From an uncultured Alistipes sp. (lineage in GTDB: Bacteria > Bacteroidota > Bacteroidia > Bacteroidales > Rikenellaceae), in contig CALUNL010000006.1 of the NCBI GenBank assembly GCA_944322005.1, positions 62,001 through 126,000 of the forward strand: a stretch of 64,000 nt of DNA. Direction: 5' to 3'. This document shows positions 5,999 to 20,857 of this stretch, piece after piece. The notes under the pieces are model-generated. The model saw only the letters and a program-made list of their open reading frames with translations. It had not been told where the DNA came from and made no database searches. A program made the position numbers and the translations under genes. Numbering within the stretch: the first letter of the stretch is position 1; each line of letters starts with the position of its first letter.

Positions 5999-6907
5999 AT
6001 GAAAAAGATGAAAAGACCTTTTAAATTTATGATGGCTGTTGCAGCTGCGTTGTGTGCATTTTGCGCTTATGCACAGGAGGACCCGTCCAAGGAGACAGTC
6101 ATCGTCGACCCGTTCACCAATTCTGCCGGAGCATCCGAAACGGCCCGCGACAATGTCCGTTCGGCCGTCATAAGCGGTTTCTCGCAGGTGGGGCGTTTCT
6201 TCGTGGTGGATGCCATGACGGACTCGAGACTGTCGAAACTCTATGAGAACCGAAAGATTGAGGATGTGGTGAACGACGCCAACTGGAAGGCGGAGAGCGA
6301 CGTCGCATACAAGGCTGTCGGCGCAAACAAGCTTATCCGTGGTACGGTTGACCTCCATTACGAGCACAAGAAGCCGAACAGCGACGGCAAGATGGTATAC
6401 TATACCGACATAAACTTCACGCTTCAGGTGTTCGACATTACGACCGGCGCGCTCGACGGCTCCGAGAGCTACAAGTACAGCGAGTTGAGCCTCTCTTCGT
6501 ATGCCGACTCCTTCAACAGCGTCATAAGAAAGGTGACCAAGGACATGACGCAGTTCTGCAACAAGTTTTTCAAGATGGAGTCCTACATCCTCGAGCTCGG
6601 CGAAGCCGACAAGGGCGGCAACATCAAGGACCTGTGGATTTCGGGCGGAACCGAGGTCGGAATTTCGAACGGTACCATCTTCAAGGTCCTCTCCGAGAAG
6701 AAGATAGGCCCTAAGGTTACCCGCGTCGCAATAGGCGAGGTGATTGCCAAGGAGGTGCTCGAAGGCATGACCCGTTGCGAAATCAAGAACAAGAAGGAGG
6801 GCGAGGTCATCAAGACCAAGTTCAACGACGGCGAGAAACTCTACATAGAGCTCGACCGCAAGCGCGGTGACGGAGCGAAGGAAATAGGACGTCTCTTCGG
6901 CTTCTGA
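5999..6907 (+). CDS. Exported CsgG-like protein, first gene of the zinc-ribbon/caspase-like locus
   Basis: 302 residues from ATG 5999. A signal peptide (KRPFKFMMAVAAALCAFCAYAQ) ends at a probable signal peptidase I site and is not a lipobox, so a soluble periplasmic or secreted protein is expected. The start of the mature part (TVIVDPFTNSAGASETARDN, then a helix and GRFFVVDA) resembles the nucleotide-binding-like fold of CsgG/LpoB-type proteins, which read 'action on several targets, then report an activity'. The C-terminal ~100 residues form a small beta domain (WISGGTEVGISNGTIFKVLSE) seen after CsgG-like folds in Bacteroidetes. Family match is by recognition only. It has its own promoter and a strong hairpin after its stop, so it may be transcribed apart from the following genes. 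Confidence 0.6.
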   Translation: MKKMKRPFKFMMAVAAALCAFCAYAQEDPSKETVIVDPFTNSAGASETARDNVRSAVISGFSQVGRFFVVDAMTDSRLSKLYENRKIEDVVNDANWKAESDVAYKAVGANKLIRGTVDLHYEHKKPNSDGKMVYYTDINFTLQVFDITTGALDGSESYKYSELSLSSYADSFNSVIRKVTKDMTQFCNKFFKMESYILELGEADKGGNIKDLWISGGTEVGISNGTIFKVLSEKKIGPKVTRVAIGEVIAKEVLEGMTRCEIKNKKEGEVIKTKFNDGEKLYIELDRKRGDGAKEIGRLFGF

Positions 6908-6934
6908 CGCCTGCGGGGAACGGTATGTCCGCGT

Positions 6935-6962
6935 GCGGCCGCAGCCCGATTGCTGCGGCCGC
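6935..6962 (+). terminator. GC-rich 11-bp hairpin after the CsgG-like gene
   Basis: GCGGCCGCAGC (6935-6945) and its exact complement (6952-6962) flank a 6-base loop. No T-run follows, so this may be a partial or Rho-assisted terminator or an RNA-stabilising hairpin. Confidence 0.5.
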
Positions 6963-7121
6963 GGCTGATTGTACCGGCCGCGAAAAATAGATGCATTATT
7001 GGGGCCGTGTTCGCAAGGGAACCGGCCTTTTGTTTTCAAAATGGATATAAAAGTGTGCGAAAAAGCGGTTTTTTCGCTAAAAATTCATATATTCGCAATT
7101 ATAACAAATATTCTACAGGCT

Positions 7122-8384
7122 ATGTTGAGAAAATTTCTGATTCCGCTGCTGACATTTTGCGCGATTCTGCCGTGTGCGGCGCAAGACTATACCGCTGACG
7201 CGACCCTTTTGAGGACCGAAGAGAGCTATATCGTTCTGGAGTGCTCGGGCATAGCCCGCAACAAGAAGGAGGCTGTCGAAATGGCCAAGAAGTCGGCCAT
7301 ATACACCTACCTTTACATCGGTATCAACGGGTTCGACAAGGGCAGGCCGCTGCTGGGCAGGAATCCGTCGGATGAGGCGAGAGCCTACGCCGACCGTATC
7401 CTCGGAACGTCGAGCTATGCCAACTATATCCGCAACTGCACGATTGACGACAATATCAACAAGACCGCGAAGAGAGACGTGCAGGTGCTGGCGAAGATAG
7501 AGCTATACCACGTGTCGCTCAAACGCACGCTCGAGAATGCCGGCGTGCTGAAGCGCTCGGCCGACGAGATAGAGCTCTCCGAGACGCGCGAGGCCATCGC
7601 CATGCCGACGGTAATGGTGGTGCCGTTCCGCAAGAACAACGAGTCGTACGAGGAGGCCATACGCAACAACTCCGACATGCGCATGGCAATATCGAAAGTC
7701 AACGAGGGATTCATCAACGAGGGCGTCGAGACAAAGGACCTGCTCACCTGCCTGAACAATGCGGAGACATACCGTATCCGCATGGGCGACGGCATGTCGC
7801 TCGACGACATGATTCTCGCCAACTCCGGTGCGGACGTGTCGGTGAGCGTCGATATCAACCAGGATGTCAACTCCACGGGCATGCGCGTGTCGCTGACGTT
7901 GCAGGCCACCGAGGTCGCGACCGGCAATACGCTGGCGACCAAGTCCGAGGTGTCGGGCCGCAAGCGCACGACGGCGGACGTGTTGTGCGGCGTCATGGCG
8001 AGGTCGATGGTGGGCGACTTCCTGAAGCAGATTGCCACCCGCATGGCGACGAAGATGGATACGGGCCAGAGCGTCTCCCTGCGGTTTACGATAGACCCGT
8101 CGTCGGCAATCAACATGGATACCGAAATCAACAACATAATGCCTTTGTCGGATATACTCATCTCGTGGGTGAAGCGCCATGCGGTCAACGGCCGCTACCA
8201 TACGCAGGGCCGTACCAGCACGATGCTCTCGTTCAGCGACATCTATGTGGACAACTCCGTGGAGAACGGCATGCAGTCCGACATCAACGATTTCGCGCTG
8301 GCCCTTTACCAGTACCTCAAGGGTCTCAACATCTCCGTTTCGCGCAACATAACTGGAAACTCCGTGGACATAGTCATATATTAA
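7122..8384 (+). CDS. Exported protein of unknown function
   Basis: 420 residues, counting from ATG 7122; a longer frame exists upstream, but only this start gives a proper signal peptide (MLRKFLIPLLTFCAILPCAAQ). The mature part begins with a beta-alpha unit, ECSGIARNKKEAVEMAKKSA, resembling the repeated 'turn amino acids into a helix' motif of LPP20/FlgT-N-like domains. A second half starts at PTVMVVPFRKNNESYEEA, similar to the start of CsgG-like domains. I do not recognise a named family with confidence (DUF6175-like is a possibility). No catalytic motif is visible. The gene is followed after 22 bases by the next exported protein gene. Confidence 0.6.
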   Translation: MLRKFLIPLLTFCAILPCAAQDYTADATLLRTEESYIVLECSGIARNKKEAVEMAKKSAIYTYLYIGINGFDKGRPLLGRNPSDEARAYADRILGTSSYANYIRNCTIDDNINKTAKRDVQVLAKIELYHVSLKRTLENAGVLKRSADEIELSETREAIAMPTVMVVPFRKNNESYEEAIRNNSDMRMAISKVNEGFINEGVETKDLLTCLNNAETYRIRMGDGMSLDDMILANSGADVSVSVDINQDVNSTGMRVSLTLQATEVATGNTLATKSEVSGRKRTTADVLCGVMARSMVGDFLKQIATRMATKMDTGQSVSLRFTIDPSSAINMDTEINNIMPLSDILISWVKRHAVNGRYHTQGRTSTMLSFSDIYVDNSVENGMQSDINDFALALYQYLKGLNISVSRNITGNSVDIVIY

Positions 8385-8406
8385 CCGTTAACTAAACCCG
8401 ACCTCA

Positions 8407-9357
8407 ATGAATACGTTACGCAAACTTCTGCTCTGTGCAGCCGCCCTGTCGGCGGCAGCGACGCTCCGCGCCCAGACGGTCGTCGACATGGCCGCCCGGA
8501 TAGACGAACCGACCGCGGCACAGCTTGGCGAGAGCAATACTGCCGCACTCCGCAACAAGATAAACCAGATTGTCGTACGTAACGGCATGGCCGCCGCGGA
8601 GGGGCTTTTCGCTGTCGTGCCGACCCTCACGGTCACCGACGACGGCGTGGTCGATACGGGAATGACGTCGGTGCATGTCGTGCGCGCCGACCTGACGCTT
8701 TCGGTGGTGAACACGGTCGACAACACCGTCTTCGCCAGCCAGACCGTATCCCTGCAGGCTAACGGAAAGAGCAGCGATGCGTGCCTGCGGTCTCTCGTCA
8801 ACAGGGTGAACGTGAACGATGTCCGGTTCGCCAAGATGATAAGGGACGTGCAGCAGAACATCGCCGACTACTACAGCCGCCAGATGTCAAAGATATTGGC
8901 CAACGTCAACTCGCTGATTGCGCGCGAGCAGTATGACGAGGCCCTGGCCGCGCTGTCCATGATTCCGGAGAGCGTGGACGAGTACGCCACCGTCGCCGAC
9001 CTCAAGGTGCAGGTGTACAACAAACTGCTCGAAAACGAGGTTAGGAAGTCCATTGCGGAGGCCGAGATACTTGTCCGCCGCGGCGACATCGACGGTGCGC
9101 TGGACCTCTGCCTCGCCTGCAATCCGTTGAGCCCCAACTATTCGGAGGTCATCGCCTTCATGAACCGCCTCGACGCCTCCGCTGCCGCGGCCGAAGCCGA
9201 GGCGCGCGAGGCCGAACTGCGCAAGCTCGACGCCGAGGCCATGCGCCAGCGTATAGAGACGGAGGCCAGTGCCGAAGGCAACGTGCTGAAGGCCGAAAAG
9301 GCCGAATCGAGCAGAAAGAAGGGAAAGTCGCTCGGGGAGTGGCTCTTCGGACTGTGA
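8407..9357 (+). CDS. Exported protein with C-terminal coiled coil, unknown function
   Basis: 316 residues from ATG 8407. The signal peptide ends at LRAQ. Residues ~25-160 form a beta/alpha domain (VVRNGMAAAEGLFAVVPTLTV), reminiscent of the CsgG-like and LPP20-like proteins around it. Residues ~160-260 are helical with TPR-like character (EQYDEALAALSMIPE, RRGDIDGALDLCLACNP). Residues ~258-305 are a charged Ala/Glu/Lys coiled coil, ending in SLGEWLFGL. No family is assigned. The gene is tightly placed between two same-strand genes, and co-transcription is likely. Confidence 0.6.
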   Translation: MNTLRKLLLCAAALSAAATLRAQTVVDMAARIDEPTAAQLGESNTAALRNKINQIVVRNGMAAAEGLFAVVPTLTVTDDGVVDTGMTSVHVVRADLTLSVVNTVDNTVFASQTVSLQANGKSSDACLRSLVNRVNVNDVRFAKMIRDVQQNIADYYSRQMSKILANVNSLIAREQYDEALAALSMIPESVDEYATVADLKVQVYNKLLENEVRKSIAEAEILVRRGDIDGALDLCLACNPLSPNYSEVIAFMNRLDASAAAAEAEAREAELRKLDAEAMRQRIETEASAEGNVLKAEKAESSRKKGKSLGEWLFGL

Positions 9358-9406: not shown

Positions 9407-10345
9407 ATGAAGAGATGCCCTGTTTGCAATACCAGTATGGAGGACTCGCAGCAGTTGTGCCCCTCCTGCGGGACCGATTACCTCTCGGCCGTGATTGACG
9501 ATATATCCGCCGGGGCGGCCGCGGATACCGAGATGCTGCTGGATAACCTCGAGGACGGACTGTCGGCCATGGACCATGCGCCGCTGCCGACCGTGAGGGA
9601 GACCTTGCGGCGCATGTCGCCCGTTTTGTGCGGCATTGCGCTGGCGTTCTGCCTGCTTGCCGGCCTTGCCACCCGGGCCAACATCTTCTATCTGCTGGCC
9701 GTCGTGCCTCTGGCGGCGCTCATACCGTCGCTTGTGGCATTGGCCAGACATCGCCGCCCGTTGGGGCGTGGCGAGGTCATCGTGAATGCCGCCGCGCGCG
9801 TGTTTGCCGAGGATGCGGCCGCCGTGAAGACTAAATGTGCTGACCGCGGCGATGCCGTGGCCCGCCTCGACGCCATGCAGCGCCGCGTGGACGAGGCCCT
9901 GGCGCGCCAGCGTTCGGCGCATCTCCGTAACGGGAGGGTCGTATGGGCCGTTGCCTGTGTCGTGCTGCTGCTGGCCGGTGCCGGTGTCGGCGCCCTGGCC
10001 GTCCGCAACGGGGCCGCCCGCAAGGCAAAGGCGGAGTATGCCAAACTCCCCGAGTGGGTCAAGCTGCGTGACAGCTACCTCGCAGAGTACGGCAGCGACG
10101 AGTACGCCGACAAATCCGCGCGTACGGGTGTCGTACGGGCGATGCTCGGGGCCGATGCCGCCGCCGAGGCCGAGGAGTTCTTCTTCTCGCACTGCCAGGG
10201 GAGTGTCGGAGACATGGATTGCGCGATGCTGATAGTGGAGTACCACAGGACGCACGGCGGTTCCGACGCCATCGGCGCCTTCACGTCGAAGGTCTCGCTG
10301 CGATACGATTCCGATACGAAGAAAATACGTTCCATAAAACAATGA
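9407..10345 (+). CDS. Zinc-ribbon membrane protein, unknown function
   Basis: 312 residues from ATG 9407, with AAGGA placed about 8 bases upstream; the in-frame TTG two codons earlier is rejected. The N-terminus is a zinc ribbon, CPVCNTSMEDSQQLCPSCG (CxxC-x11-CxxC). Two hydrophobic segments follow at ~67-112 (SPVLCGIALAFCLLAG, YLLAVVPLAALIPSLVALA) and a third at ~185-205. The C-terminal ~100 residues are probably extracytoplasmic or a small soluble domain (SYLAEYGSDEYADKSARTG). The ribbon matches those on three later proteins of the locus. The stop codon overlaps the next start (ATGA), so translation is coupled. Confidence 0.65.
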   Translation: MKRCPVCNTSMEDSQQLCPSCGTDYLSAVIDDISAGAAADTEMLLDNLEDGLSAMDHAPLPTVRETLRRMSPVLCGIALAFCLLAGLATRANIFYLLAVVPLAALIPSLVALARHRRPLGRGEVIVNAAARVFAEDAAAVKTKCADRGDAVARLDAMQRRVDEALARQRSAHLRNGRVVWAVACVVLLLAGAGVGALAVRNGAARKAKAEYAKLPEWVKLRDSYLAEYGSDEYADKSARTGVVRAMLGADAAAEAEEFFFSHCQGSVGDMDCAMLIVEYHRTHGGSDAIGAFTSKVSLRYDSDTKKIRSIKQ

Positions 10346-11625
10346 CCCGGATGAAACGCCTGTTGATACTTGCCGTGTCGGCGCTGCTCTTCCTGCCGCT
10401 GACCGCTTCCGCCCAGAAGGAGAAGGTCGTGGAGCGGAGCGACAAACGCAAACCGGAATGGATAGGACGTTCCGATGCCGACGCAATCTCCGTTACGGAG
10501 GTGGGAGAGACCCTTGCCGAGGCCTCCGAAAGGTGCATGGCCTCGATTCGCCAGCAGATTGTCAATGCCGTGGCGGTGAACATCTCCTCGACGGAGAAGA
10601 TGACGTCGCGGCAGATTACACGGGACAATCTGATGACGGTCATGAACGACTACTCGTCGAACCTCATGACCGAGGCGGCCAAACTGCCTTACATCAGCGA
10701 CATCGCACTGTCGAACGCGGAGGAGGTGTATTGGGAGCGCATATACAGCCGGAAGGACAAGACCTACCGGTACGAATATTCTGTCCGCTATCCGTTTACG
10801 GAGCAGACCCGCCGGCAGCTTGTCGACGCCTTCGTCGCCATCGACGACGCGAAGGTGAGGGAGTACGAGCGGTTGCGCGACGAACTCGGGACGATAGACA
10901 ACATCGACCGCATAGGCCAGGCTGTCAATGAACTGGAGGCGTTGTACGGCTACTTCTTCGACGCCACGCGCCGGGGCGAGACCGAGGCGCTCCGCCGCAA
11001 CTATCTCGGACTTTTCAACCGTATCTCCATCGAGACGGAGTCCGAGTCGGCCGGCTCGTGCATCTATTCGCTGCGCCTCGACGGCCGCAGGGTGACGACC
11101 TCCGTGCAGCCTCGCCTGAAGAGCGACTCGGCCATGGAGATGAGTGTCAGGGCGTGCGACGACAACCGATATATTCTCACCTACAATCCGGAGTACGCAT
11201 CAGGTTCGGAGGTGAACGTCATCGAAATCCGCTATGTGTTCGGCGGCGTCGCCGTATCGAGGACCATTGTCTTCGACCCTTCGGAGAACAGGTCCGCCCT
11301 GCAGCCTGTAGGTACGATTGACCTGGAACAGACCGAGGGACGCCTTTGCGGAAAGATTCGCCTCCGCGTGCAGGGCAAGGCTGTGGATGTATCGGGTCTC
11401 GAACTTCGCAATCCGGCCGACGGCGAGACGTTCAAGGCGGCCGTTCTCGGCCCGACCCGTCTCGGGGAGGGCGAGTGCAGCATAGGATTCGAGGCCGAAG
11501 CCTCGGTTGGACACGCCGCAGGCGGACTCGACGTCATCCGTGGAACCATAACATACGCGAACCCTTCAAACGGACAGAACATGGAGAGGGAGTTCGTGCT
11601 GCCATTCAGACTAATCACCAAATAA
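10342..11625 (+). CDS. Exported LPP20-like protein
   Basis: 427 residues from ATG 10342, which overlaps the upstream stop by four bases; a second ATG at 10351 is possible. The signal peptide ends at LTASAQ. The mature N-terminus, RKPEWIGRSDADAISVTEVG with a long helix and MASIRQQIVNAVAVNI, resembles LPP20-family domains (a beta strand, then a helix rich in recurring A/R, then a TYRYEYSVRYPF strand). The C-terminal ~200 residues are beta-rich, possibly two immunoglobulin-like domains. No catalytic motif is seen. Its neighbour at 11636 is a short lipoprotein of the same general kind, so the two may interact. Confidence 0.55.
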   Translation: MTRMKRLLILAVSALLFLPLTASAQKEKVVERSDKRKPEWIGRSDADAISVTEVGETLAEASERCMASIRQQIVNAVAVNISSTEKMTSRQITRDNLMTVMNDYSSNLMTEAAKLPYISDIALSNAEEVYWERIYSRKDKTYRYEYSVRYPFTEQTRRQLVDAFVAIDDAKVREYERLRDELGTIDNIDRIGQAVNELEALYGYFFDATRRGETEALRRNYLGLFNRISIETESESAGSCIYSLRLDGRRVTTSVQPRLKSDSAMEMSVRACDDNRYILTYNPEYASGSEVNVIEIRYVFGGVAVSRTIVFDPSENRSALQPVGTIDLEQTEGRLCGKIRLRVQGKAVDVSGLELRNPADGETFKAAVLGPTRLGEGECSIGFEAEASVGHAAGGLDVIRGTITYANPSNGQNMEREFVLPFRLITK

Positions 11626-11635: not shown

Positions 11636-12208
11636 ATGAGAAAGAGCCTTTTCGGAGCCCTTGTGCTCCTTGTTTTAGCCGGCGCGACATCGTGCGGCGC
11701 ATCGAAGAAAGTTGTTGCAACTCCACCTGCCGACATGGTGGAGGAGAGCATTCCGTTGAGCGGCCCTCAATATCGCAGCGATGCGGATTATTACCGTGCA
11801 GTGCAGAATGCTACCAGCAAGGAACGCAGCATGGCGCAGAAGATTGCCATGCAGAACTGCCGTCAGGACCTTGCGGCAAACCTTCAGGCCGACTTGCAGC
11901 AGGTTCTGGAGAACTATGCCAAGAACCAGGAGGTGAGACTCTCCGTGGAGTACAAGTCACAGTATCAGGAGCTCTCCTATACGGTCGTGAACCAGCAGCT
12001 GCGTGACGTGCAGGTGGTGGAGGAGAAGATGTTCCGTCAGGACGACGGCCTCTACCGCTACTACGTATGTCTCCAGATGCCGAAGAAGGTCATCCTCGAT
12101 GCCGTGGAGGATGCCATTGCCAACGACGCCAAACTCAACCTGGAGTTCGACCGCGAACAGTTCAGAAAGGTCTTTCAGGAGATGATGGCGGCGAATGCAC
12201 AGAAATAA
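11636..12208 (+). CDS. LPP20-like lipoprotein
   Basis: 190 residues from ATG 11636. The lipobox LAGATSC gives a lipidated Cys at about residue 20. The body has the LPP20-like pattern: MAQKIAMQNCRQDLAANLQADL (helix), KSQYQELSYTVVNQQLRDVQVV, then YRYYVCLQMPKKVILDAV. It closes the first sub-operon: a strong T-tailed hairpin lies 27 bases beyond the stop. Envelope location is well supported by the lipobox; the function is unknown. Confidence 0.65.
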   Translation: MRKSLFGALVLLVLAGATSCGASKKVVATPPADMVEESIPLSGPQYRSDADYYRAVQNATSKERSMAQKIAMQNCRQDLAANLQADLQQVLENYAKNQEVRLSVEYKSQYQELSYTVVNQQLRDVQVVEEKMFRQDDGLYRYYVCLQMPKKVILDAVEDAIANDAKLNLEFDREQFRKVFQEMMAANAQK

Positions 12209-12304: not shown

Positions 12305-13744
12305 ATGAGACGTATCGCCGCCATATTGCTGCTGCTTTCGGTTGCAGCCCCGCTCGGGGCGCAGAACCGCCGCGAGGCCCTGCTCGAGTATCAGTCCCGA
12401 CGCAGGCAGGCCTATGCGCAGTTCCGCGACAACTATCGCGAGGCGTGCACCGAGTTCATGCGCAAACGCTGGGAGGCGTTCCGCACCGAGGCTCCCGTGC
12501 CCCTGCCCGAACGCAAGGAGCCGGACAGCCCGGTCTGCAAGCGTCCCGACGACACCTCGCTCCCGAAAGAGGTGAGGATTCCGTACGGTGACATTGTGGA
12601 TGTCCCGGCAAGGGAACCCTCGAAACCGGAGGGCCAGGAACCTGCCGCCGCTCCGAGAATCGACGCGTCGCGCCCGTGCAGGTTCACGTTTTACGGCACG
12701 GAGTGTTCGGTTACGCTGAAACCGTCCGACCGCATCCGCCTCGCCTCCCTGCAGGAGGGGAGTGTGGCCGATGCATGGGAACGCATCGCCGGAGGGCCGT
12801 ATGACGGGGCCGCAGCGGAGTGCGCCGACCTGAAGAAGCGGCTGCGGCTGAACGACTGGGGCTATTACAAACTCGTATGGACGTTGGGCGATGCCTTCTG
12901 CGGGGCCGGAACCGACGAGTCGGTGCTCGTGCAGTCGTTCCTGATGGCCGAGGCCGGATACAAGGTCCGCCTGGCGAGGGGAGACGGAAGGCTGCGTCTG
13001 CTGCTGGCACTTGACGGGCAGGTATACGAGCACCCGTATTTCCGAATCGACGGCCAGACATTCTATCTGCTCGACGGTGCCGCACGCGCCGGTTCGTACA
13101 ATATTTGCAACTTCTGCATACCGGGCGAGCGCGAACTCTCGATGTCGATGCCCGACCCTCCGTTGCTGGCATATGCCCCGGCCGCCACTGCGGTCCGGAA
13201 CGACAAGAAGGGCGGAATCAGAACGGAGGTGACGCCGAACGGCAACCTGCTCGACTTCATGGAGGATTACCCTCCGTGCTATTGGGACGTATATGCGGCG
13301 ACGAACCTCTCGGACGGCATCTGCGACCTGCTTCTTCCTCCGTTGCGCCGTGCTACGGCCGGACTGGGGGAGCGGGAGGCCGCCGATGTCCTGCTGAAAT
13401 ACATGCACCGCGCATTCCCGTACAAGACCGACAAGGCACAATTCGGCCGGGAGCGCACGCTGTTCGCCGAGGAGATGTTCAGGTTCCCGTACAGCGACTG
13501 CGAGGACCGTTCGATTCTCTTCGCACAGCTTGTGCGGCGGGTGCTGTCGTTGAAGACCGTGCTGCTCTACTATCCGAACCATATCGCTGCGGCGGTATGC
13601 TTCGGCGGGCCGGTGGCCGGCAACTACGTGGAGATAGACGGCAGACGCTACACCGTGTGCGACCCGACATACATCGGTGCCGACGTCGGCGAGGTGATGC
13701 CGGGAATGGAGGGGCTTGCCGCGAGAATCATCAGAATAGATTAA
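12305..13744 (+). CDS. Exported transglutaminase-like protein
   Basis: 479 residues from ATG 12305. A signal peptide (AAILLLLSVAAPLGAQ) is followed by a charged Arg-rich helix and a long middle region. The C-terminal ~130 residues look like a transglutaminase/cysteine-protease-like core: C399 in YSDCEDRSILFAQL, H426 in YPNHIAAAV, D453 in VCDPTYIG, a Cys-His-Asp order typical of the family. In the family, such domains hydrolyse or cross-link peptide bonds; here only the residues are visible, and the reaction is inferred. The gene begins a sub-operon with the caspase-like and SPFH-like genes, 18 bases before the former. Confidence 0.65.
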   Translation: MRRIAAILLLLSVAAPLGAQNRREALLEYQSRRRQAYAQFRDNYREACTEFMRKRWEAFRTEAPVPLPERKEPDSPVCKRPDDTSLPKEVRIPYGDIVDVPAREPSKPEGQEPAAAPRIDASRPCRFTFYGTECSVTLKPSDRIRLASLQEGSVADAWERIAGGPYDGAAAECADLKKRLRLNDWGYYKLVWTLGDAFCGAGTDESVLVQSFLMAEAGYKVRLARGDGRLRLLLALDGQVYEHPYFRIDGQTFYLLDGAARAGSYNICNFCIPGERELSMSMPDPPLLAYAPAATAVRNDKKGGIRTEVTPNGNLLDFMEDYPPCYWDVYAATNLSDGICDLLLPPLRRATAGLGEREAADVLLKYMHRAFPYKTDKAQFGRERTLFAEEMFRFPYSDCEDRSILFAQLVRRVLSLKTVLLYYPNHIAAAVCFGGPVAGNYVEIDGRRYTVCDPTYIGADVGEVMPGMEGLAARIIRID

Positions 13745-13762: not shown

Positions 13763-15583
13763 ATGTTCTGTCCTAATTGTGGAAAGAGATGCGACGGCGG
13801 CGCCTACTGCTGTAACTGCGGGGCCAAGCTCCCCGTATCTTCCGCCGTGGCCACTGACGCGGAGCCGGAGAAGGCTCCCGTTCCCGAGGCTGCCCATGAA
13901 CCCGCTTCTGCCGCCCGGCCTCACGCCGTGGTGTCGGATGAGGGCAGCCCTGTGCCGCAGAAACCGAAGGACGCCGGTGCAGCCGTGGCCGAAGGGGCGA
14001 TATTCACGAACCTCAAGGCCCTTGCGGCCAAGCTCAATACCGATACCGGGACTCTGCGGCGACTCCTGTCAGCCTATGCCGCGGCGGCGCTTTCAAGGGG
14101 TGTCAGGTACCATCTGATTGACGCCTCGGAGTATGTGTGGATGAATCCGGGCGCAAAGCCGGGAAGCACTGCCCGACTGTCGCCTTCCGACTCATGGGTG
14201 GAGCACATAGCCCTGCTGGCTGACTACTTCCGCTACGGCCGCAGCCGGGAGAAGGAGGAGACCAACTACCTCTTCATCGTCGGGGGCGAGGATGTGATTC
14301 CGATGCCGGTCGTGCCGCACTACATGGCCGACAGGCCCGGAATAGGGGAGAAGGACATAGATACCGACATCCCGTACGCCTACATGCTCGGGGAGCGTAC
14401 ATACCCGCTGCTCAAGTCGGGGGAGCTGTTCAACTACGAGCAGTATTTCCATGTCGGCCGCCTGCCGTTCCCTACAGACGCGTCGCTGGACGACCTTACG
14501 GGTTATCTCCGCCGCGTGGCGAAGTGTTCGGGCACCGTGCTGCTGAAACGCTATTACGGGCAGGTCAACATGCCGTGGGGAGAGGATTCGCAGGTCGTTT
14601 GCGAGCCGCTGCGCAGGAGGGGCCTCCATACGACGGCGCATGACTATGAGTCCAGCTATGCCGATGTCGGCGGGGAGAGGATGTCCGTCGCCCGGAACGG
14701 TCTCTACTACTCGATTCCGGTCGTGGAGGAGAATGTCGACCAGATATTCGATGCCGACGCCGATTTCTACTACTTCAACCTTCACGGGAGCGACGCCCCG
14801 ACCACGAGCGGATTCGTGGCCGATTACCGGCAGGTCGGTTACGGGGCGATATCGCCGCGCCAGCTCGCATCGGTCAGAACGCCCAATTTCCTGGTTTCGG
14901 AGGCGTGCTACGGCGCGAAGTTCATGCAATACAGCCGTGACAGGTCTATGCTCCTGGCCGCAATCACCAGCCGGACGCTGCTCTATCTGGGTTCGTCGCG
15001 CAGCGCGTTCTGCAACAACTGCTATCCGATAGACAACTCCGACAGGCTGGCCAACATATATATCGGGGAGCTGTTCAACGGCCATACGGCCGGCGAGGCG
15101 CTCTACCTTGCCCGACGCAGCTTCTTCGAATACGACGAGGGGCGTCTTTACGACCAGCAGATGGTCTCGATAGTCGAGTTCAACATCTTCGGCGACCCGA
15201 CGCTGCGCGCGCATGGAGAAGGGACGGCGGCCAGGTCGCTGCCGGAGGGAGTCTCCGTGATGACGAAGAATCCGGTCTATACCGTTTCGGGGCAGGAGTG
15301 CCTGTACAAGTCCGACCCGGGCCGTCCGGAGTCGTTGCTGGAGGAGGTGCGCGGCCTTGTGGACCGCAACATCATGCGTATACGCGAGGTGGTGGACCGG
15401 ACGCTCTACGAGAGGCTCGGCGTGGAGCCGCGGAGCCTCAGCGCCATATTCCGCAACCGTTTCGCGGACGGAAAGATGTTCTATTCGTTCGACTATGTCG
15501 AAAACAACAGATATTTCAGCCGGGTGCATACCGTAATAACGTCCCCGGACGGAGAGGTGAAAACAATAATATCAACCAAATAA
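13763..15583 (+). CDS. Zinc-ribbon protein with C25/gingipain-like caspase-fold protease domain
   Basis: 606 residues from ATG 13763. There is no signal peptide: it starts directly with a zinc ribbon (CPNCGKRCDGGAYCCNCG), then a Pro/Ala-rich linker (~25-75). From ~80 onward comes a caspase-like alpha/beta domain: LFIVGGEDVIPMP, a conserved HVGRLPFP strand, H341 in YFNLHGSDAP and C382 in VSEACYGA. That is a His-Cys dyad about 40 residues apart, as in clan CD peptidases (gingipain C25, caspases). FNIFGDPTL near residue 480 is also characteristic of C25 domains. Known gingipains are secreted; this one appears cytoplasmic, so an intracellular regulatory protease is inferred. The ~100-residue C-terminus is unassigned. 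Confidence 0.7.
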   Translation: MFCPNCGKRCDGGAYCCNCGAKLPVSSAVATDAEPEKAPVPEAAHEPASAARPHAVVSDEGSPVPQKPKDAGAAVAEGAIFTNLKALAAKLNTDTGTLRRLLSAYAAAALSRGVRYHLIDASEYVWMNPGAKPGSTARLSPSDSWVEHIALLADYFRYGRSREKEETNYLFIVGGEDVIPMPVVPHYMADRPGIGEKDIDTDIPYAYMLGERTYPLLKSGELFNYEQYFHVGRLPFPTDASLDDLTGYLRRVAKCSGTVLLKRYYGQVNMPWGEDSQVVCEPLRRRGLHTTAHDYESSYADVGGERMSVARNGLYYSIPVVEENVDQIFDADADFYYFNLHGSDAPTTSGFVADYRQVGYGAISPRQLASVRTPNFLVSEACYGAKFMQYSRDRSMLLAAITSRTLLYLGSSRSAFCNNCYPIDNSDRLANIYIGELFNGHTAGEALYLARRSFFEYDEGRLYDQQMVSIVEFNIFGDPTLRAHGEGTAARSLPEGVSVMTKNPVYTVSGQECLYKSDPGRPESLLEEVRGLVDRNIMRIREVVDRTLYERLGVEPRSLSAIFRNRFADGKMFYSFDYVENNRYFSRVHTVITSPDGEVKTIISTK

Positions 15584-15596: not shown

Positions 15597-17735
15597 ATGA
15601 AATGCAAAAACTGCAATTCCGAACTGTTGGAGGGCGCCAAGTTCTGTACCGCCTGCGGTACTCCTGTTGCGCCGGCCGCAACCGTGCCTGCATGCAAGGC
15701 CTGCGGGGCGGAACTTCTGCCGGGTGCGAAGTTCTGTACTACATGCGGAGCGCCTGTAGAGAGCGATTCTGCAAACGTACAGGCAGACCGTGAAGGGGGA
15801 GAGATGACCTCCGTCAAGAGAAAGATATTCTGGAACATCCACAAGGGAGAGATTGCCTGCAGGATAAACGAGGCGGAGTTCCTCAACTACGATGCGGCGC
15901 AGGGCCTTATCGTCAACGACGGGACGACGGCATACGTGAAGGCCAACGGCAAGGTGCTGGCCGAGATTCACGGGGGCGTCTACGACTTCGTGGACCCGGA
16001 GGAGCTGAAGAGGATTCTCGAAAGCCGTCAGGGCGGGGCCGTCGGAGCCCTCTCCTCCGGATGGAGATTCATCGTGAATGCCATTCTGGGCCGCAAGGTC
16101 AAGGACAAGCTTGACAAAAAGGAGGACCCGAAGAGGGAGAAGTCGCTCGATGCGCTGCTGGAGAGCATGAAGCGTCACGAGGCATTCTCGCTGCAACTCA
16201 AGCTGGACAAGAACTTCTCGCTGGTGTTCGGTTCGGGGACGTTCGGAGAGGACGGCGTGTTCGAACCGATGCTGGTGCGTACGAAGCTGCTCGACCTCAA
16301 GATGGGTGTGCGCGCGGTATTCCACATAGGGGATTTCCAACGCTTTGCCGAGCACTTCCTCGTCGACCGTCCGGTCGCCACCACAAGGAGCATAGCCGAG
16401 GAGCTTGCCCCTGTCGTCCGCAATGCCGTGCAGGCCGTGATGCAGGACAAGGAGATTGAGGGTACGGCCATCCCTTCGGAGATTGTCGAAGCCATATCGG
16501 CACGCATGGCCGTCTCCGACGAGCTCTACGGTATCAGTTTCGACCATATCGCCGAGGTCGTCGCCTCGAACGAGGATTTGGAGCGCCTTCGCGACCTGAG
16601 CCGCGAACTGTACCTTTCGGAGCAGGAACTCGACTATCTGCGCCGCACGAACGAGTTCCGCAACCGCCTTACCGCGGCCACGAACGCACAGACCGTGGCC
16701 GAGGCGCGCAGTGACCTGGAGCTGTTCCAGGGGTTGCAGGAGGTGAACAAGGACAAACTGCTGACCGAGGACGAACTCGACAAGTTCTATACGGTGCTTT
16801 CGCGAGAGAAGCGTATCCGCGACGCCCGCAGCGAGGATGAAGTGGAGGCCGCCATGGCCGAGATTGCCAAGACCGGGCTGTTGCGCGAGGAGGACATCGA
16901 GAACCTGCGCGCCGATATCGCCGAACGCGGCTACCGTCGCGGCCAGTCGCTGAGGCTCATGCAGCTCAAGGATGAGATAGAGTTCGAGAAGGTCCGTACG
17001 GCCGGTGAAGGTGAGATAGAGTTGGAGCGCCTACGCCGCAGCCTCGATTTGCAGGACATGGCGCTTGCGGGACAGCGCCGGGCCGACGAGTATGCCGATG
17101 AAAGGCGTGCGAAGGAGCGCGAGCACAACTATGCCGACCGCAAGGCCGAGCAGGAGCTCGACAACGCGGAGATGGATGCCCAGATTGAGCGCCTGCGCAA
17201 GCTCAAGGAGATGAAGCGCGAGGACAAGAAGCAGGACCTCGACCATGAGCGCGAGATGGAGCGCCTGCGTCAGGAGGCCCTCGACAAGAAGGCGCAGATG
17301 TCGGCCGAGCAGTTGATGGCAATTGCCGTCAGCGAGAATCTCGATTCGGCTGCGGCGGCGAAGTTCGCCGAGTCCTTCTCGGCAGGCAAGAGCGCCGAGC
17401 AGGTGCAGCAGGCTTCGGATGCACGCATTGCGGATGCGCAGCGCCATGAGGAGCAGATGATGGAGATAATACGCCAGATGCAGCAGATGGCCACGACGAT
17501 GAGCGGAAATATAGCGCAGCACAAGGACGAGCAGCGTGAAGAGTACCGCCAGCGTCTCGAAAGGCAGGAGGAGCGCCTCGACCGCACGCAGGACCGTGCG
17601 CTCGACTATACCACGCGCAGCAACAACCGTCAGGCCGCACCGCAGCAGCCTTCGGGCAAGGCGTGCCCGGATTGCGGGGCCGTGGTTCCGCAGGGCACCC
17701 GTTTCTGCCCCGGATGCGGCCATGAACTCAAATAG
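15597..17735 (+). CDS. SPFH-like coiled-coil protein with zinc ribbons at both ends
   Basis: 712 residues from ATG 15597. Two zinc ribbons open the protein (CKNCNSELLEGAKFCTACG; CKACGAELLPGAKFCTTCG) and one closes it (CPDCGAVVPQGTRFCPGCG). Residues ~80-300 resemble an SPFH/band-7-like domain of the virion-core/YdjI type (GLIVNDGTTAYVKANGKVLAEIHGG). Residues ~310-650 are a long charged coiled coil. There is no signal peptide and no clear membrane helix. SPFH proteins organise membrane microdomains and oligomerise; a scaffold holding the neighbouring zinc-ribbon proteins is an inference. It starts 13 bases after the protease gene. Confidence 0.65.
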   Translation: MKCKNCNSELLEGAKFCTACGTPVAPAATVPACKACGAELLPGAKFCTTCGAPVESDSANVQADREGGEMTSVKRKIFWNIHKGEIACRINEAEFLNYDAAQGLIVNDGTTAYVKANGKVLAEIHGGVYDFVDPEELKRILESRQGGAVGALSSGWRFIVNAILGRKVKDKLDKKEDPKREKSLDALLESMKRHEAFSLQLKLDKNFSLVFGSGTFGEDGVFEPMLVRTKLLDLKMGVRAVFHIGDFQRFAEHFLVDRPVATTRSIAEELAPVVRNAVQAVMQDKEIEGTAIPSEIVEAISARMAVSDELYGISFDHIAEVVASNEDLERLRDLSRELYLSEQELDYLRRTNEFRNRLTAATNAQTVAEARSDLELFQGLQEVNKDKLLTEDELDKFYTVLSREKRIRDARSEDEVEAAMAEIAKTGLLREEDIENLRADIAERGYRRGQSLRLMQLKDEIEFEKVRTAGEGEIELERLRRSLDLQDMALAGQRRADEYADERRAKEREHNYADRKAEQELDNAEMDAQIERLRKLKEMKREDKKQDLDHEREMERLRQEALDKKAQMSAEQLMAIAVSENLDSAAAAKFAESFSAGKSAEQVQQASDARIADAQRHEEQMMEIIRQMQQMATTMSGNIAQHKDEQREEYRQRLERQEERLDRTQDRALDYTTRSNNRQAAPQQPSGKACPDCGAVVPQGTRFCPGCGHELK

Positions 17736-17748: not shown

Positions 17749-18102
17749 ATGGATGACTATCAGGGAATACTCGGTTACCGGCTCAACCATGTCGGCACCC
17801 GCTCCGAAGGGATGTACGCCTTCCTTGTCACGGACGAGGGGCAGGAGCTGCCGTTGTGCCGGGAGGGCATCGCCCCGTTCAACGACGCCTTTTTCGAGCC
17901 GTTCGACGGACAGCGTGTAAGGATATCCGCCACGGTGGACCACGGCTGGCTCGTCGTGGACTCTGTCGAAACCGTCGGGAAGGAGCATGATGAGGAACGG
18001 GAGGAGAAGCCGGAGTCGGAGACGGCTCCGGAACCGGAGGATACGGATGAGGCTCCGGATATCGTGGCTGACTGTGAAAACGACAATACGCAACAACTAT
18101 GA
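17749..18102 (+). CDS. Small acidic protein, unknown function
   Basis: 117 residues from ATG 17749, 13 bases after the SPFH-like gene. Residues ~1-75 form a small beta domain (YRLNHVGTRSEGMYAFLVTDEGQE, VRISATVDHGWLVVDSV), perhaps OB-like. The tail (~80-117) is strongly acidic and probably disordered. The stop overlaps the next start by four bases (ATGA), so it is translationally coupled to the tail-anchored zinc-ribbon protein. No family is recognised; the tight packing supports a real gene. Confidence 0.6.
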   Translation: MDDYQGILGYRLNHVGTRSEGMYAFLVTDEGQELPLCREGIAPFNDAFFEPFDGQRVRISATVDHGWLVVDSVETVGKEHDEEREEKPESETAPEPEDTDEAPDIVADCENDNTQQL

Positions 18103-19667
18103 AGATATGTCCAAAATGCGGGGCTGAACTGGATGACGGGCTCCGTTTCTGTAAAAAATGCGGTTCGGAGTACCGCGAATCGGACCTCTACGCCCGCAAG
18201 AGGGACAAGGGGGATGCCGGGAAGTCCGATAGGGATGTCGATGACCTCATCGGCGACAAGAACCTCATAAACGAGAGTACGATTATCGGGAAGCAGGAGA
18301 AGTACGAGGCCTCCAACATCACAATCAACAACACCGTGACGGAGGACCATTCGCATACGACCGTCGTATGTTCGGTATCGGGAAAGCGCGTATATCTCGA
18401 CCACAGCGTGGTATGTCCGGAGTGCGGCAAGCCGGTGGCTCTGGAATATTATCAGGAGAGTTCCAAACGGTGTGACAACTGCGAGGAGAAGGCCCGCGAG
18501 GCCTTCCGCTCGATAGCCTCCGGGATAGCGGCGGAGGGCCCGCTCGACGCCGCGCGCAAGAGGCGGCTCGACAGCGAGGCGAAGAGGTTGCGTATAGACG
18601 ACTCCGTGCAGACGGAGATTCTGCGTACGCTGCAGCGGCGCGGACCGGCTCCCGGAGGGAAGTTGAGTACGTTGCAGAAGGCTGAACTCGAGACGGCCGT
18701 CAGGCAGCTTATGCAACTCGACGAGCCGCAGACGCAGCAGCATGCCATGGAGTCGCTATCCGTGCTGCACGAACTTACCGGAAACTACATTGCCGACTGC
18801 TGGTATTTTCTCGGTCTGGCCGTCACGGCTCCGGAGGAGTCGGTGCGCAGGTACGAGGAGGAGGTTACGGACATCTACTGGCAGCGTTACTGGGGGTATC
18901 TGGCCTATTGCGCCGTCGGGTCTCCGAAGGGAGGTGCGGCTGTGGAGCGGTTGAGGGCCTCGTTCGGGGAGCATGAGGATGATATCCGTCTGGCCGAGAC
19001 GGCCTACTGCATGGCCCGCGGCTTTGCCTCATTCGACCGTTCGATGATGAAGCATGCCGGCGAGATGGCGGAGCAGATACGTCCCGAATACCTTTCGCAG
19101 CCTCTTGCGGCGGTGTATTCGCTGATGAAGAGGGTGCTTGCGGAGGATATACGTCTGGACGGCGACTATACCGCGGAGGAGGTATTCTTCATCGTCGCCG
19201 TTCTCCGTGCCGGCCGTTATGTGGAGCGTTTGCAGGCCGAAGCGCAGGAGCTTGCCCGCAGGCAGCGGGAGGAGCAGGAGAGGCGCGAGCGAGAGGCCCG
19301 CGAGGAGCGTGAGCGCCGTGAACGCGAGGTGCGCGAGGCACTGGAGAGGCGTGAACGCGAGGCGCGAGAGACCCGCGAGCGTCAGGAGCGTGAACGTGCC
19401 GCGGCAGAGGAGGCGAAGCGCAGGAAACAGGCCGAACTTGCGGCCGAGCGCACCCGCCGCATGGAGCAGGAGATGGCCCGTCTGGGCGGCAACAAACCTC
19501 GCAGGGACGACTCTTCCGACAAGGCGAAGGCCTTTGCCGGATACGAGACGACCGTTCCGGGAAAGAAGAAGGGCGGATGGAAACGTACGCTGCTTATTGT
19601 GGTCATAGTGCTGATTCTCATACTTGTTGCACTGTTCCTCATTCCTGCGCCGGAGTCGCTGCAGTAG
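18099..19667 (+). CDS. Zinc-ribbon, coiled-coil, tail-anchored membrane protein
   Basis: 522 residues from ATG 18099, overlapping the previous stop by four bases. The N-terminus has a zinc ribbon (CPKCGAELDDGLRFCKKCG). A second treble-clef-like Cys set (VVCPECGKPVALEYY, RCDNCEE) lies at ~105-130. A helical region of ~130-370 follows, then a highly charged Arg/Glu coiled coil (~385-465). One hydrophobic segment at the very C-terminus (TLLIVVIVLILILVALFLIP) predicts a tail anchor. The protein body would face the cytoplasm, like the SPFH-like neighbour. Last gene of the sub-operon; a 12-bp hairpin follows. Confidence 0.65.
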   Translation: MKICPKCGAELDDGLRFCKKCGSEYRESDLYARKRDKGDAGKSDRDVDDLIGDKNLINESTIIGKQEKYEASNITINNTVTEDHSHTTVVCSVSGKRVYLDHSVVCPECGKPVALEYYQESSKRCDNCEEKAREAFRSIASGIAAEGPLDAARKRRLDSEAKRLRIDDSVQTEILRTLQRRGPAPGGKLSTLQKAELETAVRQLMQLDEPQTQQHAMESLSVLHELTGNYIADCWYFLGLAVTAPEESVRRYEEEVTDIYWQRYWGYLAYCAVGSPKGGAAVERLRASFGEHEDDIRLAETAYCMARGFASFDRSMMKHAGEMAEQIRPEYLSQPLAAVYSLMKRVLAEDIRLDGDYTAEEVFFIVAVLRAGRYVERLQAEAQELARRQREEQERREREAREERERREREVREALERREREARETRERQERERAAAEEAKRRKQAELAAERTRRMEQEMARLGGNKPRRDDSSDKAKAFAGYETTVPGKKKGGWKRTLLIVVIVLILILVALFLIPAPESLQ

Positions 19668-19698
19668 AGGGATACGGCAAGGCAAAGATATTCATGTC

Positions 19699-19728
19699 GG
19701 AAGGACCGGGCCAAAGCCCGGTCCTTCC
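19699..19728 (+). terminator. 12-bp perfect hairpin after the tail-anchored protein gene
   Basis: GGAAGGACCGGG (19699-19710) pairs exactly with CCCGGTCCTTCC (19717-19728) across a 6-base loop. No U-run follows, so termination may be partial. Confidence 0.6.
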
Positions 19729-19810
19729 GTGCGTTCAGGGCATGACGGGCACGGTTGCGTGCATTGCTGGTGCGGGCCATGGCTCCGGAGAGCATAAATG
19801 ACAGCCGTAT

Positions 19811-19842
19811 TTTGCGGATTTGACCGTTATGTGCTATTTTTG
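19811..19842 (+). promoter_or_regulatory. Bacteroidetes-type promoter for the 19871 gene
   Basis: TTTG (19811-19814), 20 bases, TATTTTTG (19835-19842). The spacing and both boxes fit the consensus; the leader would be about 22 bases. Confidence 0.65.
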
Positions 19843-19870
19843 TGACAGTGCTGATTTTCCACGATACATT

Positions 19871-20857
19871 ATGAAGAGAGTCGTATTTCTGTTGTTTGCG
19901 GGACTGCTTCTCGCGCTCCTTGCGCCGACCGTGCAGACGGCATACGGAGCCGATGACGTCAAAAAGGGGAGAAAGACCTATACGGTGAATGAGGAGCATA
20001 TCCGGCGCCAGGAGGCCGAAAAGGCCGCACCGTCGGATTTCACCGTGTATGTCAGGAGCCACCTGACCGACAGGACGCTGATGCACAAGATCTATTTCCT
20101 GCTCTATCTGGTCATGCCTTTCGCCATACTCGGCGTATGCCTTGTGATGGAGTTTACGGGAGGATGGGACAACAGACGGTTGATGTTACTGCTCGGACTC
20201 TCCGAGCTTCTCTTCGCAACCGGCAATGCCGGCATCGGCCAAAACATGTTCCCGTGGTTCTGCGACTATGACATCGTAGGGTGGATCGTGGCCATCATAT
20301 GCTTCTGCTACATGATCCGAATGCTCCTGAAGCAGGCGCCGGCGTTCGTCGGCTTCGTCAATTATTACAGCAGCGGCTACAGCCTGTTGAGGACGGTATT
20401 GCTGTACGGGATATATGTGGCGCTCGGAGTTACGGTTACCATGCTTCTCTCGGGGAACAAGTATTTCTGGACGGCCCCGATAGCCATCGCCGCCGCCTGG
20501 TACTATTTCTACAGGTCGGAGGAGATGAGTGCGTCGGAGGCAGCCCGGACGGTGCTCGTCTCAGGGGTGATATTCGGCGGTTTCATCGTATTCCTGATGC
20601 AGGTGCTGGGAATGATCATAATTGTTGCCATGGTGATGTTCTTCCTCAATGGCTTTGCAAGCATAAAGTCATCGCCGGTCGTTGACGACGGTTCGTCGAA
20701 CCACAATGACGGCATGCTTGAACGTGCGGCCGACGGAACACCGTTCGTCCGCCACTCGGACGGTTCCTCCACCCAGTTGCGAGACCTTGGCGACGGCAAC
20801 TTCGAGGGTTTCGACGGCTCTCCGTGGCGCAGCAACGGCGACCATATGTCACGATGA
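19871..20857 (+). CDS. Multi-pass membrane protein with signal peptide, unknown function
   Basis: 328 residues from ATG 19871; a longer upstream frame has no ribosome site. A cleavable signal peptide (VVFLLFAGLLLALLAPTVQTAYG) leads to a ~55-residue extracytoplasmic segment. About five or six membrane helices follow between residues ~75 and 265 (for example YLVMPFAILGVCLVMEF, VIFGGFIVFLMQVLGMIIIVAMVMFF). The C-terminal ~60 residues are polar, with GTPFVRHSDGSSTQLRD. No family is recognised. It has its own promoter and terminator but follows the zinc-ribbon locus on the same strand, so a link is possible. Confidence 0.6.
   Translation: MKRVVFLLFAGLLLALLAPTVQTAYGADDVKKGRKTYTVNEEHIRRQEAEKAAPSDFTVYVRSHLTDRTLMHKIYFLLYLVMPFAILGVCLVMEFTGGWDNRRLMLLLGLSELLFATGNAGIGQNMFPWFCDYDIVGWIVAIICFCYMIRMLLKQAPAFVGFVNYYSSGYSLLRTVLLYGIYVALGVTVTMLLSGNKYFWTAPIAIAAAWYYFYRSEEMSASEAARTVLVSGVIFGGFIVFLMQVLGMIIIVAMVMFFLNGFASIKSSPVVDDGSSNHNDGMLERAADGTPFVRHSDGSSTQLRDLGDGNFEGFDGSPWRSNGDHMSR

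What the first reader, a model, noticed from the sequence alone, without database searches (positions are those of the whole stretch)
5999..20857. Long locus joining exported CsgG/LPP20-like proteins with intracellular zinc-ribbon, caspase-like, transglutaminase-like and SPFH-like proteins
Twelve same-strand genes with coupled starts, most without a recognisable named family, include two putative cysteine-enzyme folds, an SPFH-like scaffold, and four zinc-ribbon proteins. Exported and cytoplasmic members alternate. This resembles a trans-envelope sensing or response device more than a metabolic pathway. Clustering and overlaps are seen in the sequence; the function is inference.
Basis: partly seen in the sequence, partly recalled or inferred. 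Interest (0 to 1): 0.78.

Follow-up and report, generated by a model that had tools for sequence, protein, structure and literature searches.

The report
Envelope-spanning operon with caspase-fold protease
Some gut Bacteroidales carry a rare, conserved gene block that joins a cytoplasmic caspase-fold protease and its membrane-linked zinc-ribbon partners to exported outer-membrane and cell-wall proteins, which looks like an undescribed device that links the state of the cell envelope to proteolysis.

Summary
The cluster is real and co-inherited. With the SPFH-like gene alone as bait I drew 50 loci; with the window, 51. A peptidase C25 gene (gingipain family, caspase clan) is in 50 of 51, same strand in 50 of 50, His/Cys dyad in 50 of 50. 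DUF6175 is in 43 of 43 Bacteroidales loci not cut soon after g9, five of them by weak matches. Inner half: zinc-ribbon C25 peptidase, zinc-ribbon SPFH-like protein, OB-fold protein, zinc-ribbon protein with one membrane span. Outer half, exported: FlgT/LpoB/CsgG-like, DUF6175 and LPP20 proteins, and often an MltC-like lytic transglycosylase or a transglutaminase-like enzyme. Gene order is permuted between lineages, linkage is kept. The block is sporadic: 3 of 295 order genomes, 4 of 101 genus genomes. My searches found no description of it. The proposed function, envelope-coupled proteolysis on an SPFH-like platform, is inference; the SPFH assignment is only moderately supported.

The parts
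5730..5761 (+). Bacteroidetes-type promoter motif TTTG-N20-TAnnTTTG, 237 nt upstream of g1
   Evidence: 9 exact matches in the window, 0.46 expected; none on the + strand between here and 19811 (the consensus itself is recalled)
5999..6907 (+). g1: exported FlgT/LpoB/CsgG-like protein
   Evidence: 38 of 51 loci carry it (lowest scores 20-35 bits); members match LpoB 18/38, FlgT_C 13/38, CsgG 5/38
7122..8384 (+). g2: exported DUF6175 protein
   Evidence: PF19672 E 4.9e-50; 43 of 51 loci, five of them at 22-34 bits
8407..9357 (+). g3: exported protein with TPR-like C-terminal half; part of the DUF6175 cluster elsewhere
   Evidence: 12 of 51 loci; g3-like gene beside DUF6175 in 14 of 16 loci without the inner module
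9407..10345 (+). g4: N-terminal zinc ribbon, two or three membrane spans, C-terminal part beyond the last span; Rikenellaceae only
   Evidence: 7 of 51 loci; hydropathy
10342..11625 (+). g5: exported protein in the LPP20b position
   Evidence: g5 family in 9, LPP20b in 28 of 51 loci; LPP20 domain in 28 of 29, not in the window protein
11636..12208 (+). g6: LPP20 lipoprotein
   Evidence: PF02169 E 7.9e-4, below cut-off; LPP20 family in 35 of 51 loci
12305..13744 (+). g7: exported transglutaminase-like enzyme; slot taken by an MltC-like lytic transglycosylase in 24 loci
   Evidence: Cys399/His426/Asp453 invariant in 8/8; SLT and Mltc_N in 24/24 of the alternative
13763..15583 (+). g8: zinc ribbon + Peptidase C25, no signal peptide
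   Evidence: PF01364 42.9 bits; His341/Cys382 in 50/50
15597..17735 (+). g9: double zinc ribbon - SPFH-like domain - coiled coil - zinc ribbon
17749..18102 (+). g10: small OB-fold protein (alternative start 17722)
18099..19667 (+). g11: zinc ribbon(s), one membrane span; tail-anchored here, with about 120-150 residues after the span in most relatives, often Sel1 repeats
   Evidence: 49 of 51 loci; span in 46 of 53 ORFs; Sel1 in 27/49

Best explanation
g1-g11 encode one trans-envelope proteolytic device made of two modules. Inner module (cytoplasm and inner membrane): the SPFH-like g9 forms a scaffold at the inner membrane; the C25 peptidase g8 docks on it through matching zinc ribbons; g10 (OB fold) is an adaptor; g11 carries a cytoplasmic zinc ribbon through one membrane span to the periplasm, where many versions have Sel1 repeats (in the Rikenellaceae version g4 may take that role). 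Outer module (periplasm and outer membrane): FlgT/LpoB-like g1, DUF6175 g2 and the LPP20 proteins g5/g6 form an outer-membrane or peptidoglycan-facing assembly, with a cell-wall enzyme (lytic transglycosylase or transglutaminase-like) acting on the wall. Most likely working: a change in the outer membrane or peptidoglycan is passed through g11/g4 to the scaffold, releases or activates the C25 peptidase, and cleaves a cytoplasmic or membrane target to trigger an envelope response. Shown here: gene content, conserved catalytic residues, predicted locations, co-inheritance. Inferred: complex formation, direction of signalling, substrate and outcome.
For: With one bait gene, C25, g11, g10, DUF6175 and the FlgT-like gene are recovered in 50, 49, 44, 43 and 38 of 51 loci; C25 and SPFH-like are on the same strand in 50 of 50, 44 of them with the SPFH-like gene starting at most 60 nt after the C25 gene. 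Dyad 50/50, so the peptidase appears to be under selection to stay active. By a crude rule no signal peptide in C25 (0/50), SPFH-like (0/51) and g11 (0/54); one span in 46 of 53 g11 ORFs; Sel1 in 27/49. Most outer proteins have an export-type N-terminus by the same rule. Linkage survives reordering: outer genes lie before the inner genes in Rikenellaceae, L025, L028 and L049, after them in most others. Distance matrices correlate within the inner module (0.91, 0.80, 0.75) and the outer module (0.81) and, less strongly, across (0.50-0.75), reached by 0 of 500 permutations each. One exact promoter motif before g1 and none inside on that strand. SPFH scaffolds paired with a protease are a documented theme: FtsH-HflKC and ClpP/NfeD-SPFH1b (PMC2636767, passages read); an SPFH protein works with membrane partners in B. 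subtilis envelope stress (PMC8581546, abstract read).
Against: SPFH identity is moderate: the window protein has no Pfam SPFH hit, hhalign gives a probability of only 39-43%, and the structure job for g9 was never accepted. The outer module occurs without the inner one nearby (all 16 fetched DUF6175 loci) and the inner without the outer (L027, L064, L067, and L060 in another layout), so neither needs the other everywhere. One locus (L044) has no C25 gene. None of the recurring families is a regulator, so a transcriptional response is not shown. 19 of 51 loci show neither cell-wall enzyme (some are cut by contig ends). Five DUF6175 assignments are weak (22-34 bits). Cross-module correlations are lower than within-module ones and no species tree was used as a control.
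Confidence: 0.4

Rival explanations
1. An export or surface-assembly machine: FlgT/LPP20-like proteins form an outer-membrane ring, the lytic transglycosylase opens the wall, and the zinc-ribbon C25/SPFH module processes or gates a cytoplasmic cargo.
For: FlgO, FlgP and FlgT form the H-ring around the flagellar L-ring in Vibrio (PMC6375700, passages read); g1 family matches FlgT_C 13/38 and CsgG 5/38; LPP20 domain in 28/29 of the g5-position set; wall-opening enzyme SLT+Mltc_N 24/24.
Against: No recurring cargo gene and no Pfam ATPase or transporter match over cut-off in the window's block proteins. The FlgT match to solved structures is weak (E 0.02). DUF6175 occurs widely without the inner module.
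Confidence: 0.2
2. An altruistic cell-death or anti-phage system: the caspase-fold peptidase is triggered by infection or envelope breach and activates a wall-degrading enzyme.
For: Sporadic distribution: 3 of 295 order genomes, 4 of 101 genus genomes, own genome only among 395 in the phylum draw. Caspase-clan peptidase with intact dyad. SPFH tree mixes families. Among 115 flanking proteins a few match PADLOC models, among them one type I specificity subunit.
Against: No PADLOC model fits nine of the eleven block proteins or g12 beyond GajA on g3 at E 0.002 (g6 and g10 not scanned). Flanking genes are varied: no Pfam family at E 1e-10 in more than 2 of 115 flanking proteins, and no PADLOC model in more than 2, most of the 25 models shown (of 48) being candidate 'PDC' models; no control set was scanned. 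No hits on plasmids (g8), phages (g9) or viral contigs (g8 alignment).
Confidence: 0.15
3. Two unrelated modules that happen to be transferred together; the inner proteolytic module and the DUF6175/LPP20 outer cluster do not work with each other.
For: Each occurs alone; cross-module correlation is lower than within-module.
Against: The 43 Bacteroidales loci not cut soon after g9 all keep both, in several gene orders (five DUF6175 matches weak); no exact promoter motif separates them in the window.
Confidence: 0.15

Closest known systems
SPFH-protease pairs (FtsH-HflKC; ClpP/NfeD-SPFH1b such as PH1510-PH1511)
   Same: A protease encoded with, or acting with, an SPFH-type scaffold at the membrane (PMC2636767, passages; PMC13086221, passages).
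   Different: The protease here is a clan CD cysteine peptidase with a zinc ribbon, not FtsH or ClpP; no NfeD match among the window's block proteins; the SPFH match is remote; an outer-membrane module is attached.
Bacillus subtilis YdjFGHI (PspA-SPFH envelope-stress complex)
   Same: An SPFH-domain protein working with integral membrane partners at the membrane under envelope stress (PMC8581546, abstract); Band_7_1 rings in B. subtilis (control).
   Different: No PspA among the window's block proteins in Pfam scans; a peptidase and exported outer-membrane proteins are added.
Gingipains and other C25 peptidases
   Same: Peptidase_C25 domain over cut-off, His/Cys dyad intact.
   Different: No signal peptide in 50 of 50 by a crude rule; N-terminal zinc ribbon in most; placed in an operon with a scaffold-like protein. 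Gingipains are secreted (recalled).
FlgO/FlgP/FlgT H-ring of Vibrio flagella and MltC-type lytic transglycosylases
   Same: FlgT-like, LPP20 (FlgP-type, recalled) and MltC-like proteins encoded together.
   Different: Apart from the FlgT-type matches no flagellar family was seen in the block; sequence similarity is remote.
DUF6175 / LPP20 cluster of Bacteroidales
   Same: The outer module (DUF6175, g3, g5, LPP20) is the same set.
   Different: It occurs without the inner module in the 16 neighbourhoods fetched for this; 36 of 149 order genomes have DUF6175. Here it is joined to the inner proteolytic module.

Membership tests
Peptidase family C25 | Pfam PF01364 over its gathering score | tested here: met
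   42.9 bits against 23
Peptidase family C25 | Clan CD His/Cys catalytic dyad | tested here: met
   His341 and Cys382 in 50 of 50
Peptidase family C25 | Secretion signal as in gingipains | tested here: not met
   crude rule finds none in 50 of 50; this bears on gingipain-like secretion, not on the peptidase family
Peptidase family C25 | Peptidase activity | not testable with these tools
   needs an enzyme assay
SPFH / Band 7 | SPFH domain by profile | tested here: inconclusive
   Band_7 1/51, Band_7_1 1/51 at E 0.05; hhalign P 3.2e-4 with 38.7% probability, five control families P 0.09 or worse; domain only P 2.5e-4, 20 shuffles P 0.027 or worse
SPFH / Band 7 | SPFH fold and ring oligomer | not tested
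LPP20 lipoproteins | PF02169 domain | tested here: inconclusive
   window g6 E 7.9e-4, below cut-off; 28 of 29 in the g5-position set; window g5 none
FlgT / LpoB / CsgG-like exported proteins | PF16538, PF13036 or PF03783 match | tested here: inconclusive
   window g1 none; of 38 members 13, 18 and 5 at E 0.05
Transglutaminase-like | Cys-His-Asp triad in order (motif recalled) | tested here: met
   8 of 8
Transglutaminase-like | Pfam match | tested here: not met
   0 families for g7 at E 1; so it is called transglutaminase-like, not a member
MltC-type lytic transglycosylase (alternative in the g7 slot) | SLT and Mltc_N domains | tested here: met
   24 of 24 each
Known anti-phage systems (PADLOC) | PADLOC model for block proteins | tested here: not met
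   9 of 11 block proteins and g12 scanned, one weak match (GajA on g3, E 0.002); g6 and g10 not scanned
PspA-SPFH (YdjFGHI) complex | PspA gene in the locus | tested here: not met
   no PspA match among g1-g12

The most novel reading that the evidence does not exclude
An undescribed class of envelope-spanning proteolytic switch: a gingipain/caspase-fold peptidase held on an SPFH-like platform at the inner membrane and gated, through a zinc-ribbon transmembrane connector, by an outer-membrane and peptidoglycan-facing assembly. It would be a bacterial counterpart in logic to scaffold-activated caspases, spread by horizontal transfer among gut Bacteroidales, with the inner half reaching Spirochaetota and Neomarinimicrobiota.
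Probability: 0.3. Interest if true: 0.88.

Novelty: new variant of a known kind. Interest (0 to 1): 0.72.

Why it matters
Clan CD peptidases in bacteria are known mainly as secreted enzymes or toxin parts (recalled). A cytoplasmic, zinc-ribbon-bearing C25 peptidase in a fixed operon with an SPFH-like protein and exported outer-membrane and cell-wall proteins would extend the SPFH-protease theme to the caspase clan and give a tractable question: what does the peptidase cut, and what in the envelope triggers it. Records titled with named strains carry the whole or inner block (Butyricimonas synergistica, Mediterranea massiliensis; inner part plus lytic transglycosylase before the contig end in Bacteroides caecigallinarum; inner part only in Flavobacterium aciduliphilum). 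The DUF6175 cluster, present in 36 of 149 sampled genomes of the order, gains a functional lead.

Tried and rejected
Rejected: g12 (19871-20857) as a member; it is found in 1 of 51 loci, the window, is absent from the two congeners whose contigs reach past g11 (the third, G346, ends inside g11), and follows a promoter-like motif at 19811-19842. Rejected: effector-associated domain (EAD11, E 3e-4) and GajA (E 0.002) on g3 as chance. Not supported: a defence-island setting (no control set scanned). Not found: relatives on plasmids (g8), phages (g9) or viral contigs (g8 alignment). Rejected as evidence: the hydropathy peak in 15 of 51 SPFH-like proteins, which lies over a conserved stretch with charged or polar residues inside the domain.

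Counts and drops: of 77 loci returned (80 kept of 95 confirmed) I used L019-L068 and dropped L069-L095, whose listed match lies within residues 1-84, the zinc ribbons. g10 alignment used 40 of 44 ORFs; g11 alignment 49 of 53; the PF13421 comparison used 15 of 25 loci because my script read one strand only; the flank scan used 114 of the 137 listed flank ORFs plus one added from L027, to stay under the residue limit. Signal-peptide and membrane-span calls are my own crude rules; by them 4 of 44 g10 ORFs, as called with long starts, look signal-like. Weak matches kept in the counts: DUF6175 in L053, L056, L057, L058, L059 (22-34 bits) and the lowest FlgT-like scores 20-35 bits. Of the papers listed I opened passages of PMC10936438 and PMC4357240 only; the others I saw as listings.


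Full report
What is there. The window lies in a 1.84 Mb genome in 7 contigs; the nearest relatives of its g9 are from Alistipes and other Rikenellaceae. From 5999 to 19667 eleven genes run on the + strand. Gaps from g2 onwards are -4 to 96 nt with my choice of starts; g1 and g2 are 214 nt apart; g11 and g12 are 203 nt apart. The Bacteroidetes promoter pattern TTTG-N17-24-TAnnTTTG (recalled) occurs 9 times in the window against 0.46 expected; the + strand has one exact match 237 nt before g1, none inside the block, and the next just before g12. A match on the - strand at 19683-19715 is unexplained. The sigma-70 scan was uninformative.

Domains. g8: Peptidase_C25, 42.9 bits against a cut-off of 23, with CxxC-CxxC at the N-terminus. 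g9: zinc ribbons at both ends around a domain I call SPFH-like. g11: zinc ribbon and a C-terminal membrane span. g4: zinc ribbon, below cut-off, and two or three spans. g2: DUF6175. g6: LPP20, below cut-off. g3: a TPR-type match just below cut-off. g1, g5, g7 and g10 have no Pfam match of value on their own. The C25 match is the only one in the genome.

Conservation as a block. The C25 protein is found in 3 of 295 genomes of the order at E 1e-10 or better, own included, and in the own genome alone among 395 drawn from the phylum at E 1e-30 with the alignment. The g9 protein is found in 4 of 101 genomes of the genus, own included. In the three congeners besides the window, g1-g11 is syntenic at 35-66% identity; g12 is missing from the two whose contigs go on (G346 ends inside g11). 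In the two distant Bacteroidales the C25, SPFH-like, g11-like, FlgT-like, DUF6175 and LPP20 genes lie together, and the g7 position holds a lytic transglycosylase.

A scan of 84,980 species genomes with the g9 alignment returned 77 loci. I used the 50 with long matches, L019-L068; the other 27 (L069-L095), whose listed match is confined to the zinc ribbons, were dropped. With the window that is 51. Families present: C25 50, g11 49, g10 44, DUF6175 43, FlgT-like 38, LPP20 35, LPP20b 28, lytic transglycosylase 24, g3 12, g5 9, transglutaminase-like 8, g4 7. Lowest scores: C25 93 bits, SPFH-like 120 bits; DUF6175 is at 88 bits or more in 38 loci and at 22-34 bits in five. The lytic transglycosylase and the transglutaminase-like gene never occur together; 19 loci show neither. 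The eight loci without DUF6175 are four cut within 2 kb after g9 (L029, L033, L043, L047) and four outside Bacteroidales by their titles (L027 Flavobacterium, L060 Pseudoflavonifractor, L064 Treponema, L067 Neomarinimicrobiota). In the genomes of L027, L060 and L064 no DUF6175 was found; in that of L067 one weak match (E 3.8e-8) lies outside the stretch held as the locus. L044 lacks the C25 gene. L060 has a C25 gene without zinc ribbon, a different order and a very long branch. The g12 protein was found in none of the 50 loci.

Enzymes are kept active. His341 and Cys382 of the C25 domain are present in 50 of 50. The transglutaminase-like Cys399, His426 and Asp453 are in 8 of 8. All 24 lytic transglycosylases match SLT and Mltc_N.

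Two modules. The crude rules find no signal peptide in any C25 (50), SPFH-like (51) or g11 (54) ORF, none in 40 of 44 g10 ORFs, and export-type N-termini in most outer proteins. g11 has one span in 46 of 53 ORFs, usually with about 120-150 residues after it, and Sel1 repeats in 27 of 49. In Rikenellaceae only 6-7 residues follow the span, and an extra zinc-ribbon membrane protein (g4) appears; that g4 took over the periplasmic part is inference. Gene order differs: outer then inner in Rikenellaceae, L025, L028 and L049; inner then outer in most others. Distance matrices correlate at 0.91 (C25-SPFH), 0.80 and 0.75 with g10, 0.81 (DUF6175-FlgT-like), and 0.50-0.75 across the modules, each reached by 0 of 500 permutations; no species-tree control was made. 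DUF6175 occurs in 36 of 149 genomes of the order. In 16 neighbourhoods fetched from 15 genomes (one of them, G111, also has the whole block on another contig), none holding C25 or SPFH-like genes, it sits with at least one of the g3-like, g5-like, FlgT-like or LPP20 genes. So the block joins a common outer cluster to a rare inner one.

SPFH question. Pfam finds Band_7 or Band_7_1 in one member each of 51. Profile comparison with 15 Band_7_1 proteins gives P 3.2e-4 (probability 38.7%) over 114 columns, against 0.09 or worse for five other block families; restricted to the domain P is 2.5e-4 (probability 42.7%) against 0.027 or worse in 20 column shuffles. I treat SPFH-like as likely but not proven; the structure job for g9 was never accepted. 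g10 was modelled at pLDDT 81, a five-strand barrel with one helix, closest to OB folds at middling Z.

History. The SPFH tree groups the seven Rikenellaceae rows (100/100) and elsewhere mixes families: Candidatus Cryptobacteroides with Butyricimonas (100/99), Mediterranea massiliensis among Bacteroides (100/100) and apart from the other Mediterranea. This fits horizontal transfer, not formally tested. Flanking genes differ from locus to locus; a few match PADLOC models, mostly candidate ones, and no control set was scanned. Block G+C is 60% against 55% for the window.

Literature. Full-text searches for DUF6175 (none), for C25 with SPFH or zinc ribbon (7 listed), for LPP20, CsgG, Bacteroid, caspase, SPFH and lytic transglycosylase, four of six terms (none), for caspase, gingipain, zinc ribbon, prokaryot and C25, four of five (4 listed) and for the Pfam names (5 listed) gave no paper that by title and abstract start describes this block; I opened passages of two of those listed. 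The library holds open-licence papers only. SPFH-protease pairing is documented in PMC2636767 (passages), in whose text the words caspase and cysteine protease do not occur.

Working model. Inner scaffold and peptidase, membrane connector, outer assembly and wall enzyme form one device in which envelope state controls proteolysis. Gene content, catalytic residues, predicted locations and co-inheritance are shown; contacts, signal direction, substrate and outcome are inferred.

Noticed in passing
L126-L134, L138-L141: A free-standing Bacteroidales cluster of DUF6175 and g3-like, and often g5-like and LPP20 genes; in L126, L127, L128 and L132 it begins with an unassigned protein of 434-586 residues. 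Function unknown.
   Followed up: partly
L134:398-3025: An 875-residue transglutaminase-like ORF (343 bits to the g7 profile) beside an outer-only DUF6175 cluster, so the transglutaminase-like enzyme may belong to the outer module.
   Followed up: no
L044:8435-12262: A block with lytic transglycosylase and SPFH-like genes about 105 nt apart, no C25 gene between them, and no g10 found: a possible natural loss of the peptidase or an assembly fault.
   Followed up: no
L060:9794-17236: A contig titled Pseudoflavonifractor carries a diverged version with a C25 gene lacking the zinc ribbon; to my eye its neighbours look like Bacteroidales, so the label may be wrong.
   Followed up: no
window 19683-19715, - strand: Exact Bacteroidetes-type promoter match pointing into the 3' end of g11, antisense.
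   Followed up: no
L027:5572-18227: Flavobacterium aciduliphilum has two g11-like genes (480 and 953 residues) and a 762-residue protein with an export-like start next to the inner module, and no DUF6175 in its genome.
   Followed up: partly
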